NCBI GenBank assembly: GCA_946626395.1
Contig: CAMOUF010000288.1
Span: 1 to 36,774 of the forward strand
Direction: 5' to 3'
Length of the DNA: 36,774 nucleotides
From: an uncultured Clostridia bacterium
Lineage (GTDB): Bacteria; Bacillota; Clostridia; Christensenellales; Aristaeellaceae
The position numbers were made by a program, and so were the translations under genes. Of the stretch, positions 1 to 22,072 are shown piece after piece. Numbering within the stretch: the stretch's first letter is position 1; each line of letters opens with the position of its first letter. The notes beneath the pieces are model-generated. The model saw nothing but the letters and a program-made list of their open reading frames with translations, ran no database searches and had not been told where the DNA came from.

Positions 1-94
1 AAGTTCCAAGTTCTGAGTTCTAAGTTCCAAGCGGATTTTGTCAAATGAGAAAAGACTATTCAGCTTAGAACTTTGAACTTTGAACTGAAAACTT
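1..94. repeat. Inverted repeat made of degenerate 7-bp units (TTCNNAG)
   Basis: Left arm AAGTTCC AAGTTCT GAGTTCT AAGTTCC AAG (1-31); right arm CTTAGAA CTTTGAA CTTTGAA CTGAAAA CTT (64-94) is its imperfect reverse complement. May be truncated by the window start. Confidence 0.75.
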
Positions 95-14663: not shown

Positions 14664-16433
14664 ATGGCGCGGCGCGATTCCATTATGCGCAAGCCCAAGG
14701 ATTCCCGCGGGGCGCTGCGGCGGATGATTTCCTTCCTGGGCCCCTTTCGATGGCTGATTCTGCTGGTAGCGGCGCTGTGCGTGCTGTCCAATTTGCTGGC
14801 CCTGTGGGGGCCCGACCTGGCGGGCCATGCCATCAACGAGGCGGCGGCGGGAAAGGGAAAAGTGGATTTTGACAAAGTGACCTATTACGTTTACCGGATG
14901 CTGGCCTGTTACGTCTGCTCCTCCCTGCTCACCATCTCCATTCACGCCATCATGATGAACGTGTCCAAGCGCACGGCCAAAAATATGCGCCAAAGCGTGT
15001 TTGACAAGCTCATGCGCCTGCCGGTGGGATACTTTGACCGCAACCAGGCCGGGGACATCATCAGCCGGGTCAGCTACGACATTGACGTGATTTCCACCTG
15101 CATGGCCACCGACGTGGTCTCCATCCTGACCAGCACTGTGACGGTGGTGGGGTCGGTGATCATGATGATCCGCATTTCCCTGCCCCTGTCCGCCGTGACG
15201 CTGTTCAGCGTGCCCGCCGCCATCCTGTATCCCTCCCGGATGCGGAAGATCACCCAGCCCCGGTTCATCCGGCGCTCCAAATCCTACGGGGCCATGAACG
15301 GCTTTGTGGAGGAAATGCTGTCCGGGCAAAAGACCATCCAGGCCTACGCCTACGAAAAACGGGTGGAGGAGAAATTCGATTCGATCAACAGCAGCGCCGC
15401 CGAAGCCTACTATGACGCGGACCGCTACGGCGTGACCATCGGGCCCACCATGGGCTCCATCAACAATATGACCCTGGCCCTGATTGCCCTGCTGGGGTCG
15501 GTACTGTATATGGGCGGGCACATCGACCTGGGCTCCATTTCCTCCTTCGTGCTTTATTCCCGAAAATTTTCCGGGCCCATCAACGAAATCGCCAATATTA
15601 TCAATGAGCTGTTTTCCGCCCTGGCCGCCGCTGAACGGGTGTTTGCCCTGCTGGACGAAAAGGAGGAGCTTTCCGACGCCGAGAACGCTCAAGTTCTCTC
15701 CCACGTCCGGGGCGACGTGGCGCTGAAGAACGTGGCCTTTGGCTATGACGGCGGAAAAACCATCATTCACGATCTGACCATGCAGGCCCCGGCGGGCAAG
15801 CTGGTGGCCATCGTCGGCCCCACCGGCGCGGGGAAAACCACCATCATCAACCTGCTCATGCGCTTTTACGACGTGGACAGCGGCTCCATCACCGTGGACG
15901 GGACGGACGTAAGAGCCCTGACCCGGCGAAGCCTGCGGGGCGCCTATGCCATGGTATTGCAGGATACCTGGGTATTCCAGGGCACCATCTTTGACAATAT
16001 CGCTTACGGCAAGGATGACGCCACCATGGACGAGGTGGTGGCCGCCGCCAAGGCCGCCCATATCCATCCCTTCATCATGCGCCTGCCCCAGGGGTATCAG
16101 ACCGTGATCAGTGAGGACGGGGGCAATATATCCAAGGGTCAGAAGCAATTGCTCACCATCGCCCGGGCCATGCTCTATGACGCCCGGATGCTGATTCTGG
16201 ACGAAGCCACCTCCAACGTGGATACCTCCACCGAGCGGGAGATCCAGCAGGCCATGCGCCGCCTGATGGAGGGCAAGACCTGCTTCGTCATCGCCCACCG
16301 CCTGTCTACCATCCAGCACGCCGACCTGATCCTGGTGCTGGACAAGGGCGACGTGGTGGAGCAGGGCACCCACGAAGAACTGATGCGGAAAAAGGGCTTC
16401 TATTACAAACTGTACAGATCGCAGTTCGAGTGA
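14664..16433 (+). CDS. ABC exporter half-transporter (catalytic partner)
   Basis: GPTGAGKTT Walker A, ISKGQKQ signature, LILDEATS Walker B, VIAHR H-loop; start directly abuts previous stop. Confidence 0.92.
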   Translation: MARRDSIMRKPKDSRGALRRMISFLGPFRWLILLVAALCVLSNLLALWGPDLAGHAINEAAAGKGKVDFDKVTYYVYRMLACYVCSSLLTISIHAIMMNVSKRTAKNMRQSVFDKLMRLPVGYFDRNQAGDIISRVSYDIDVISTCMATDVVSILTSTVTVVGSVIMMIRISLPLSAVTLFSVPAAILYPSRMRKITQPRFIRRSKSYGAMNGFVEEMLSGQKTIQAYAYEKRVEEKFDSINSSAAEAYYDADRYGVTIGPTMGSINNMTLALIALLGSVLYMGGHIDLGSISSFVLYSRKFSGPINEIANIINELFSALAAAERVFALLDEKEELSDAENAQVLSHVRGDVALKNVAFGYDGGKTIIHDLTMQAPAGKLVAIVGPTGAGKTTIINLLMRFYDVDSGSITVDGTDVRALTRRSLRGAYAMVLQDTWVFQGTIFDNIAYGKDDATMDEVVAAAKAAHIHPFIMRLPQGYQTVISEDGGNISKGQKQLLTIARAMLYDARMLILDEATSNVDTSTEREIQQAMRRLMEGKTCFVIAHRLSTIQHADLILVLDKGDVVEQGTHEELMRKKGFYYKLYRSQFE

Positions 16434-16479
16434 GGGGCATAGGCGGAAGAAGTTTTTTACATACACTTTAAACGAACAG

Positions 16480-16669
16480 GCAAAAGGCATTAGGCATTAG
16501 ACGAAAGAGTGCAGTGTACAGAGTTCAGAGTACAGAGAATAGAACGCACACAAAGAACGAATTCAGACTTGGGGCGACTAAAAATATCTGAACTCTTCAC
16601 TCTGAACTTTCGTTTTCCTGTTGCCCATTGCCTATTGCCTTTTGCCTATTGCCTTTTGCCTATTGCCTA
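16480..16669. repeat. Two-arm heptad-repeat inverted element
   Basis: Left arm GCAAAAG GCATTAG GCATTAG ACGAAAG AGTGCAG TGTACAG AGTTCAG AGTACAG AGAATAG (16480-16542); right arm TCTGAAC TCTTCAC TCTGAAC TTTCGTT TTCCTG then TTGCCCA TTGCCTA TTGCCTT TTGCCTA TTGCCTT TTGCCTA TTGCCTA (16587-16669). Confidence 0.85.
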
Positions 16670-16763
16670 AAAAACTCTTTCATCTTTCTCCATTTTTTAT
16701 TCCAATCATATTTTCTTTTTCTTCCGCATAGGGTGAAACCGGAACACGCGTAAAGGAGGAAGG

Positions 16764-17786
16764 ATGATGGGGCAATGCTGGCATCTGTTTCCCGGCAGCA
16801 ACACGGCGGCTGGGTTCGTGGGATTCTTTGATAATTTAAGGGGCCGGGCGGGCCGGACAGTGATCCTTAAGGGCGGGCCTGGCGTGGGCAAAAGCACACT
16901 GATGAAAGCAGTAGGCAAGCGGTACGAACGCAAGGGCTGTGCCGTGGGGTACTATCACTGCTCCGGCGACCCGGACAGTCTGGACGCCGTGCTGGTGCCG
17001 GAGGCGGATTTTCTCATCCTGGACGGCACCGCGCCCCACATCGTGGACCCAGTGCTGCCCGGCGCCCGGGACGGCATTTTGAACCTGGGCGTCTGCCTTT
17101 GTGAGGAAACGCTGGAGGAGCATGCTCCGGAAATCGAAGCCCTGGGCAAAGAAATATCCGCCTGCTACGCCCGGGCTTCTCGCTACCTGCAAGCCGCGAA
17201 GGCCTTGCGGGACGATGCAGCGGCAGTCTATTCCGCCGCCCTCTCCCCCGATGATCTTTCCACGCTGCAAAAAGAGCTGGTCTCCCTGATTCCCGCTTCT
17301 TACCCGGGCCAGGATATTCACGCCTTCGCCCAGGCCATTACCTGGAAGGGGGTGCTTCAATACCTGGACGCCCTTCTCACCGATCCGGTATACTGCCTGG
17401 ATGTGCCCTGGGGCTTTGACGTTGATGCCCTGCTGCGCCCCGTATGGGAGGCGGCAGGCAGGCGGGGTCTGGCCCGGAGCGCCTTCCACGATCCCCTGGA
17501 CGCGGGAAAGATAGCGCATATCCATGCGGGAGGCGCAGCCTTTACCACCGCCGTGACAGAAGAAGGCACCGTGTTTTCGCCCCCGCTGAACCCCGCCGTG
17601 CTGCGTCGGGAAAATTCCCGCCTGGCCTTTGACCGGGCGGCCTGCGACCTGATGCGCACCCAGGCCGTGGAGGCCCTGGCCCAGGCCAAGCAGCGCCACG
17701 ACAGCCTGGAACGTTTTTATATCGACGCGATGGACTATCCCCGGCTGGATGAAATCAAAAAAGAATTCATGGATTCTTTGCCATAA
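16764..17786 (+). CDS. PRK06851-like P-loop NTPase family protein
   Basis: Starts H-L-F-P-G-S-N-T-A-A-G-F; VILKGGPGVGKSTLMKAVGKRYERKG Walker A; GGAAGGATG start context. Confidence 0.75.
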   Translation: MMGQCWHLFPGSNTAAGFVGFFDNLRGRAGRTVILKGGPGVGKSTLMKAVGKRYERKGCAVGYYHCSGDPDSLDAVLVPEADFLILDGTAPHIVDPVLPGARDGILNLGVCLCEETLEEHAPEIEALGKEISACYARASRYLQAAKALRDDAAAVYSAALSPDDLSTLQKELVSLIPASYPGQDIHAFAQAITWKGVLQYLDALLTDPVYCLDVPWGFDVDALLRPVWEAAGRRGLARSAFHDPLDAGKIAHIHAGGAAFTTAVTEEGTVFSPPLNPAVLRRENSRLAFDRAACDLMRTQAVEALAQAKQRHDSLERFYIDAMDYPRLDEIKKEFMDSLP

Positions 17787-20707: not shown

Positions 20708-22072
20708 ATGAAAAGGATTCTGTGCGCGCTGCTGTGCCTGTCGCTTTTATGCGGCGCGGTCCCGGCCTTTGCCGCGGGCGAAACCGAAATCGGCACCCTG
20801 GGCAATTCCCGTAGGGCTTATACCGTCACCTGCACGGTGCCCAAGCAGTATTCCCTGCTGAAAAAGCAGCCCAACAACACCACCCTGGAATGCATGCTGG
20901 CCAACAGCAGCCCCACCAAAACCAGCTATCTCTTCGCCATCTCCGTGGACGACGACTTTGCCGACGTGGAAAGCCTGGCCGATCTGGATGAGGAAACCCT
21001 TTCCGAAATGGAAAAAACCTATCAGGAACAGGGCCTGGCCGTGGTGTATAAGACCAGCAAAAACGGCATGAAGTTCATGTGCTTAAAGGAATCGGACAGC
21101 AAAAAGAACGTGTTCCCCTCCCTGGAAACCGTGTATCAGGGCTGCTATATCCAGCTGACCCTGTCCGCCGTGGAAGGCGAAATCAGCCCCATGACGGAAA
21201 AGCAGGCCCAGACCGCCATTGATTTCCTGGCCCCCCTCGTTTTCCCCCCCGCCGATCCCCTGCCCGACGAGGAAACCAACGACGATGAAGAGGAAGCCGT
21301 AACAGCGGACGAAGAAACGCCCGCTGAAATCATCGAAGAAACGCCCGCCGAATCCGCTGAAGAAACGCCCGCTGAAACCGCCGAAGAAACGGAAGCCCTC
21401 CCTGAGGCCGAAGAAGAAAATGCTGAGCCTGCCCAGGAAGCCCAGGCCCAGCCTGAAAAAGAAGAAGCCACTGCGGAAACCCTGACCCTGACCGGGGACT
21501 GGACCGTATACAGAGAGCCTCTGCAATCCCTGCTGACCGACGAGCAAAAGCAGCTGTTTGCATCCGCCGCCGACCCCATCGGCATGGATTACGAACCCGT
21601 GGCCGTTGTGGCGACCCAGGTGGTCAGCGGGCGGAATTTCGCTTTCCTCTGCCGTCAGCCCGGCGAGGAGGGAGAATGGATCATCGTGACCGTGTACAGC
21701 AGCCTGGATGGCAAGCAGGAGGTGCTGGGCGCTCATGTGCTGGCCCTGTACAATCTGGAAACACTGGTAGAAGCGCCCGAATATAACGGACTTCCGGTGC
21801 CCGGCGGGTGGAGCGTTTGGCGGCCTGAAGATGGCGCCGCGCTGCCGGAGGACGTGCAGTCCATCGTGGACAAAGCCATCGCCGGCGCCAAGCTGAACCT
21901 GTCCCCCATCGCGCTGCTGGCCACCCAGGTGGTGGCAGGCGTGAATTACAAGGTGCTGTGCGCCGGGAATAACAACGCCCTGTATGTGCTGGACGTGTAT
22001 TCCCCCCTGACCGGCAATCCCGTGGTGCTGAATCTGGAAATCCTGGATCTGCTTTCCTACGTGGGCGCGTAA
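20708..22072 (+). CDS. Secreted protein with Glu/Pro/Ala-rich linker and two tandem cystatin-like repeats
   Basis: Signal peptide MKRILCALLCLSLLCGAVPAFA; EETPAE repeats; repeat 1 GDWTVYRE...ATQVVSGRNFAFLC, repeat 2 GGWSVWRPE...ATQVVAGVNYKVLC; AAGGAGG RBS. Confidence 0.8.
   Translation: MKRILCALLCLSLLCGAVPAFAAGETEIGTLGNSRRAYTVTCTVPKQYSLLKKQPNNTTLECMLANSSPTKTSYLFAISVDDDFADVESLADLDEETLSEMEKTYQEQGLAVVYKTSKNGMKFMCLKESDSKKNVFPSLETVYQGCYIQLTLSAVEGEISPMTEKQAQTAIDFLAPLVFPPADPLPDEETNDDEEEAVTADEETPAEIIEETPAESAEETPAETAEETEALPEAEEENAEPAQEAQAQPEKEEATAETLTLTGDWTVYREPLQSLLTDEQKQLFASAADPIGMDYEPVAVVATQVVSGRNFAFLCRQPGEEGEWIIVTVYSSLDGKQEVLGAHVLALYNLETLVEAPEYNGLPVPGGWSVWRPEDGAALPEDVQSIVDKAIAGAKLNLSPIALLATQVVAGVNYKVLCAGNNNALYVLDVYSPLTGNPVVLNLEILDLLSYVGA

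What the first reader, a model, noticed from the sequence alone, without database searches (positions are those of the whole stretch)
16480..16669. Long two-arm element built of in-phase heptads (NNNNNAG) between two operons
Sequence shows nine consecutive in-phase 7-mers all ending AG (GCAAAAG GCATTAG GCATTAG ACGAAAG AGTGCAG TGTACAG AGTTCAG AGTACAG AGAATAG), a ~45 bp spacer, then a mirror arm of twelve 7-mers ending with seven TTGCC(C/T)(A/T) units. The arms are nested: outer AGGCAWW-type pairs with TTGCCTA-type, inner AGTTCAG pairs with CTGAACT, with CGAAAG/CTTTCG at the switch in both arms. Different heptad 'words' are used but the 7-bp period and the AG are kept, which is not typical of simple slippage of a single unit or of ordinary terminators. 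Short tandem heptanucleotide repeats (STRR) are known in cyanobacteria; whether this is an analogous or new family is unknown.
Basis: partly seen in the sequence, partly recalled or inferred. Interest (0 to 1): 0.75.

Follow-up and report, generated by a model that had tools for sequence, protein, structure and literature searches.

The report
Heptad-armed miniature IS66-type transposon relic
The 190-bp heptad element is a worn copy of a short parasitic DNA (a MITE) that carries the end sequences of an IS66-type jumping gene and hairpin arms made of 7-letter repeats; it has hundreds of relatives in this rumen bacterium, so it gives one concrete way in which the poorly understood bacterial heptad repeats get spread.

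Summary
Nine in-phase AGNNNNN heptads (16478-16542) face a 7-periodic mirror arm ending in seven TTGCC(C/T)(A/T) units, though the right arm slips phase between its inner and outer words. It is not unique: the host has 534 hits to the outer word (10 in the reversed control), and period 7 is almost the only tandem period present.

Intact sister copies are MITEs. They have unlike left and right ends sharing GTAWYTGTTCAGYCG, 8-bp target duplications, and no genes. Those 15 bp also end an IS66-family insertion sequence in the same genus. The same ends carry at least three heptad families and several heptad-free palindromes, so heptads are passengers rather than the transposition signal. Arm lengths differ in whole heptads, which points to slippage. 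Orthologous sites in three ~89%-identical species show presence/absence, different words and core inversion. No covariation supports a conserved RNA. The window copy belongs by 85% identity over its 98-bp inner part; its outer ends have decayed and its own duplication is not visible.

Convergent heptad arms are known from Xanthomonas, where no transposon link was found. The IS66-MITE carrier and multi-word arms appear new. Why the unit is 7, and why AG is so constant here, remain open.

The parts
16462..16479 (+). left subterminal motif TACACTTTAAACGAACAG, matching the family subterminal end (A/G)CRCTTTAAGCGAAYAG
   Evidence: aligned with sister copies such as L031, L042, L213
16478..16505 (+). 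left outer arm: AGGCAAA AGGCATT AGGCATT AGACGAA
   Evidence: sequence; word family A (AGGCAWT)
16506..16542 (+). left inner arm: AGAGTGC AGTGTAC AGAGTTC AGAGTAC AGAGAAT AG
   Evidence: sequence; tandem repeat rows
16541..16587 (+). conserved core AGAACGCACACAAAGAACGAATTCAGACTTGGGGCGACTAAAAATAT
   Evidence: 85% identical over 98 bp (16506-16603) to the family query, E 1.4e-23
16588..16612 (+). right inner arm: CTGAACT CTTCACT CTGAACT TTCG
   Evidence: sequence; inverted pairs I3/I4
16621..16669 (+). right outer arm: seven TTGCC(C/T)(A/T) units
   Evidence: period 7, 7.6 copies
16670..16690 (+). decayed right end (AAAAACTCTTTCATC where intact copies have CTTAAAGTGTTCTTCAAATGATTG)
   Evidence: comparison
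16438..16732 (.). outer imperfect inverted pair GCATAGGCGGAAGAA / TTCTTCCGCATAG around the element; role unknown
   Evidence: I6
14664..16433 (+). upstream ABC transporter gene (permease/ATPase); the stop lies about 45 bp before the first heptad
16764..17786 (+). downstream PRK06851-type P-loop ATPase gene
1..90 (+). second two-arm heptad element of another word family (AGTTCCA/AGTTCTA ... TAGAACT TTGAACT), partly cut by the window edge

Best explanation
The element is an old, partly decayed copy of a non-autonomous miniature transposon (MITE) family of this rumen Clostridiales genus. Shown by sequence: intact copies are ~170-500 bp, gene-free, with a left end GTAAYTGTTCAGTCGTATCAAGAACGCTTTAA and a different right end GTATCTGTTCAGTCGCAATCATTTGAAGNRCACTTTAA, and 8-bp target duplications. 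The first 15 bp also end an IS66-family insertion sequence in the genus. Inferred: the IS66 transposase, acting in trans, recognises these ends and moves the copies, which survive mainly just after stop codons. Shown: the interior is a palindrome, here a ~45-bp core flanked by mirrored heptad arrays, and other palindromes ride behind the same ends. Arm lengths differ between copies by whole heptads. Inferred: replication slippage at hairpin-prone DNA lengthens, shortens and homogenises the arms, giving species-specific words. Any effect on neighbouring transcripts (a 3' UTR hairpin) is a by-product, not shown.
For: Copies: 40 core relatives in the own genome. End pattern 17 hits, reversed control 0, with distinct left and right ends paired in the copies that show both. 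8-bp duplications: 7 of 12 candidate elements in G000 have at least 6/8 matches (TGAAACTT, TTTATTTT and GAATTGAT exact), control 1 of 108. In other species GATATTGT, CTTTTTTC and three more are exact, control 1 of 169. IS66 partner: PF03050 transposase ends directly in GTAATTGTTCAGTCGCGCCAAGA, 20 of 23 bases equal to the MITE left end, at 8 recorded insertion contigs in 3 genomes; an IS copy with both ends in L231. End count tracks array count across 29 genus genomes (Spearman 0.81; median 25.5 vs 2). Presence/absence at orthologous sites. Arm length classes mod 7: 19 of 26 left arms in one class. 8-bp duplications are reported for IS66 elements (PMC3281130).
Against: The window copy has only one recognisable subterminal motif and no visible TIR or target duplication; it is placed by its interior. 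Many heptad arrays in G003/G005/G025 show no recognisable ends, so not every array is demonstrably a MITE. The own genome (71% complete) holds only a transposase fragment. The single IS with both ends (L231) lacks matching flanks. G012 has 17 end hits but no AGAGTNN arrays. The MITE model alone does not explain why 7 is the unit or why AG is the least variable part.
Confidence: 0.82

Rival explanations
1. Array-first: heptad palindromes are a repeat class of their own, made and spread by an unknown 7-nt-step process, and the IS66 MITEs merely picked some of them up.
For: Most array ends in G003/G005/G025 lack recognisable TIRs. Different words sit at the same orthologous site (G005_C6:75786 vs G003_C52). 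Multi-word heptad arrays, with period 7 nearly exclusive, occur in other Bacillota genera with unrelated words.
Against: End count and array count rise together across the genus. Intact heptad copies have IS66 ends and 8-bp duplications. Word swaps at one site can also be repeated insertion or decay.
Confidence: 0.2
2. A conserved RNA or DNA control element (3' UTR hairpin, terminator, or array of protein-binding sites) kept by selection.
For: Strong hairpin (z -4.9); positions shortly after stop codons; AG nearly invariant within heptads.
Against: No compensatory changes in 26 copies; left and right words often mismatch; presence/absence between ~89% identical species; no terminator-like site and no Rfam match.
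Confidence: 0.1
3. REP/BIME-like repeat moved by a Y1 (RAYT) transposase.
For: Palindromic, intergenic, high copy number.
Against: PF01797 is found in only a few array-rich genomes and is not enriched there; the ends and 8-bp duplications are those of a DDE-type element.
Confidence: 0.02
4. Assembly artefact of a metagenome-assembled genome.
For: The host is a fragmented MAG.
Against: The same architecture with independent sites in a dozen separately assembled genomes.
Confidence: 0.01

Closest known systems
Xanthomonas GGGAATC heptameric repeats (Rehm et al. 2015, PMC4692102)
   Same: Heptads with constant and variable positions; ~185 arrays per genome; 70-75 convergent two-arm pairs; intergenic, close behind the upstream ORF (28 nt) rather than the next start (160 nt).
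   Different: Single word family, G-quadruplex type, and the authors generally found no association with insertion sequences or transposable elements; here several words, no G-tracts, and an IS66-MITE carrier.
Cyanobacterial STRR and other heptanucleotide long SSRs (Calothrix, Nostoc; Beggiatoaceae TAACTGA, PMC4679880)
   Same: 7-nt unit, intergenic, genome-wide, patchy between relatives.
   Different: Reported as direct arrays of one word, mostly without mirror arms, core or transposon ends.
IS66-family insertion sequences and IS-derived MITEs
   Same: TIR beginning GTAA/GTAT shared with an IS66 transposase-bearing element, 8-bp target duplication, short gene-free body.
   Different: Interiors are exchangeable palindromes, heptad arms among them, rather than a shrunken copy of the IS interior.
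Eukaryotic foldback (FB/Galileo) elements (from general knowledge)
   Same: Long inverted arms built of short tandem repeats.
   Different: No homology; works like them in anatomy only.
REP/BIME-RAYT system
   Same: High-copy intergenic palindromes.
   Different: Other ends, other transposase class; Y1 transposase not associated here.

Membership tests
IS66-type MITE | Terminal inverted repeats shared with an IS66 transposase-bearing element | tested here: met
   (GTAAYTGTTCAGTCG at IS and MITE ends); met for intact sister copies, ends decayed in the window copy
IS66-type MITE | 8-bp target site duplication | tested here: met
   for intact copies in G000, G023, G025, G020; not visible at the window copy
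IS66-type MITE | Short, non-coding, dispersed in many copies | tested here: met
IS66-type MITE | Insertion polymorphism / empty orthologous site | tested here: met
   sister elements in G003/G005/G025; the window's own site has no close enough relative
IS66-type MITE | Mobilisation in trans by the IS66 transposase | not testable with these tools
   needs an assay
Heptanucleotide tandem repeats (STRR/LSSR) | Tandem 7-nt units, period-specific, intergenic, variable in unit number | tested here: met
Xanthomonas GGGAATC-type repeats | GGGANTN unit able to form G-quadruplexes | tested here: not met
   words AGGCAWT, AGAGTNC, AGGAGTK, AGTTCYA
Xanthomonas GGGAATC-type repeats | Two convergent arms in close proximity, shortly after the upstream ORF | tested here: met
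REP/RAYT | Associated Y1 transposase (PF01797) | tested here: not met
Intrinsic terminator | Short G+C stem followed by a T run | tested here: not met
Known structured RNA family | Rfam match above gathering score | tested here: not met
   whole window
Conserved RNA hairpin | Compensatory base-pair changes | tested here: not met
   8 consensus pairs, no double-change types in 26 copies

The most novel reading that the evidence does not exclude
The 7-nt step and the near-invariant AG reflect a specific generating or recognition machinery (a polymerase slippage register or a protein reading AG-N5 units) shared by many Bacillota. It would write new heptad words into palindromes, with IS66 MITEs only as one vehicle.
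Probability: 0.15. Interest if true: 0.85.

Novelty: new variant of a known kind. Interest (0 to 1): 0.52.

Why it matters
Heptanucleotide repeats are reported as the most abundant long simple repeats in most bacterial genomes that have them (cited in PMC4679880), and how they spread is not settled. Here a carrier can be named: MITEs with IS66 ends and 8-bp duplications that transport heptad palindromes and, behind the same ends, quite different palindromes. Spread becomes testable with a transposition assay, and the question splits in two: what moves the arrays (IS66-type ends) and what makes and keeps a 7-nt unit (still open).

Tried and rejected
Rfam on the window: none. RAYT/Y1 transposase: not associated with array-rich genomes. 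Phage collection at DNA level: no match. RNA covariation: none. Terminator and promoter scan: nothing. Using the flanking ATPase gene to find the window's own empty site: genus relatives are at most 72% identical in protein and not syntenic there. A universal AG rule: rejected, since GA-phased arrays dominate in several phylum genomes and AG is hardly above its word frequency in the G003/G005/G025 set. The G023 full-length IS66 as direct partner: its one visible end begins GTAAGCG, a different subgroup. A single-site TSD guess for G003_C79:22269 was only approximate; the systematic test replaced it.

Full report
The observation. The stretch reads as reported: AGGCAAA AGGCATT AGGCATT AGACGAA AGAGTGC AGTGTAC AGAGTTC AGAGTAC AGAGAAT AG at 16478-16542, a core, CTGAACT CTTCACT CTGAACT, CTTTCG, and seven TTGCC(C/T)(A/T) units ending at 16669. 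The left arm is strictly in phase. The element lies between an ABC transporter gene (stop at 16433) and a PRK06851-type ATPase gene (start 16764). A second two-arm element with other words (AGTTCCA) is cut by the left window edge at 1-90.

Not chance and not unique. The outer word has 534 hits in the 2.5-Mb host against 10 for the reversed control. In 371 kb, period 7 gives 94 arrays and every other period from 4 to 15 except 14 gives 0-7. The core plus inner arms has 40 matches in the own genome; the window copy is 85% identical over 98 bp to the query copy. Three word families exist in this genome: A (AGGCAWT outside AGAGTNC), B (AGGAGTK) and C (AGTTCYA). About a dozen of 28 same-genus genomes carry many related arrays with their own words; most of the others carry none.

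Ends and mobility. Aligning copies showed a subterminal CACTTTAAG motif and, further out, CTGTTCAGYCG. A pattern for this end has 17 hits in the host and none for the reversed control. There are two end types: a left one, GTAAYTGTTCAGTCGTATCAAGAACGCTTTAA, and a right one, GTATCTGTTCAGTCGCAATCATTTGAAGNRCACTTTAA. Copies that show both ends pair one of each. Flanking 8-mers match at 6 or more of 8 positions in 7 of 12 candidates against 1 of 108 control offsets; TGAAACTT, TTTATTTT and GAATTGAT are exact. In other species of the genus GATATTGT and CTTTTTTC (both heptad-bearing, G023), TCTTCCTG, CGGGCCTC and GAATAAAT are exact, with 1 of 169 in controls. These are the marks of transposition with an 8-bp duplication.

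Partner. IS66 transposases (PF03050) occur in the genus only in array-bearing genomes (G023, G006, G004). The G006/G004 transposase (Pfam IS66 match) runs straight into GTAATTGTTCAGTCGCGCCAAGA; 20 of 23 bases equal the MITE left end. The same end is seen on eight contigs of G004, G006 and G013, mostly broken at nearly the same interior point, as expected of a multicopy IS in short-read assemblies. A fragment of the transposase (89% identical over 38 residues) remains in the window's own genome. A copy with both ends lies in L231, rumen genome RUG596, ends GTAACTGTTCAGTCGCACAGAG and GTAATTGTTCAGTCGCGCCAAG; its flanks do not show a duplication. IS66 elements with 8-bp duplications are on record (PMC3281130). 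Across 29 genomes, end counts follow array counts (Spearman 0.81). That IS66 transposase moves the MITEs is inferred from the shared ends and the duplication length, not shown by experiment.

Interiors. Behind the same ends lie heptad families A, B and C in G000, AGAGTAC and AGAGTTG words in G023, and heptad-free palindromes: GGGGGAAACCATTCTTTGG in G000, CGGATATTATCCGCC in G025, and GTCATCCTGAGCG in G020. Heptads are therefore not required for movement. They are one kind of palindromic cargo.

Evolution. Three species about 89% identical in DNA allow site-by-site comparison: shared copies, clean presence/absence, different words at one site, and apparent core inversion. In one case an array has replaced the end of a gene and supplies its stop (G003_C79:12330 against G005). 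Distances between the subterminal motif and the inner anchor fall in classes 7 bp apart (19 of 26 left distances in one class mod 7; 11 and 8 of 22 right distances in two classes), and near-identical copies differ by exactly one heptad. Slippage by whole units is the natural reading (inference); the two right-arm classes show that one phase is not required across words.

Function. No compensatory change supports a kept RNA fold, and no terminator-like site or Rfam family is found. Arrays tend to lie shortly after stop codons (medians 6.5-38 bp in tandem gene pairs, simple ORF calls), as in Xanthomonas (28 nt, PMC4692102), which insertion tolerance explains as well as function does.

What stays open. 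Within heptads AG is the least variable part in families A, C and I of the host (0.97/0.99 against about 0.4-0.98 elsewhere in the unit), and AG is the most conserved dinucleotide in 63% of host arrays against a word frequency of 20%. Multi-word heptad arrays, with 7 nearly the only period, occur in other Bacillota genera, but AG dominance is not universal there. The predominance of 7 is a known puzzle for which polymerase footprint and slippage have been suggested (cited in PMC4679880). This part is not explained by the MITE model.

Verdict. A degenerate member of an IS66-type MITE family with heptad arms: known ingredients in a combination that I did not find described in the papers searched; the Xanthomonas study generally found no link of its heptads to mobile elements.

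Noticed in passing
window 1-90: A second two-arm heptad element with AGTTCCA/AGTTCTA words, cut by the window edge; the same word family elsewhere in the genome has the IS66-type ends (L206, 193 bp, 7/8 duplication).
   Followed up: partly
L099:9070-9566, L302, L303, L312: Elements with the same ends but heptad-free palindromic interiors (GGGGGAAACCATTCTTTGG, CGGATATTATCCGCC, GTCATCCTGAGCG), with exact 8-bp duplications: one set of ends, exchangeable palindromic cargo.
   Followed up: partly
L231:109-1729: An IS66-type insertion sequence with both ends and a single transposase region in rumen genome RUG596; the transposase region is split over reading frames.
   Followed up: partly
L265, L264 (genomes G173, G136): Other Bacillota carry arrays in which only AG recurs every 7 bases while the other five bases drift from unit to unit (AGTCACC AGTCACT AGTCCTC AGTTTAA AGTTAAG).
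   Followed up: partly
G003 contig C79:12330-12438: A heptad array has replaced the 3' end of a gene and provides its new stop codon, compared with the orthologue in G005.
   Followed up: no
window 16438-16451 and 16719-16732: Outer inverted pair GCATAGGCGGAAGAA / TTCTTCCGCATAG around the element, not part of the family consensus; perhaps an older hairpin into which the MITE inserted.
   Followed up: no
window 21310-21391: A 24-bp tandem repeat (3.4 copies) inside a 454-aa open reading frame without a family match.
   Followed up: no
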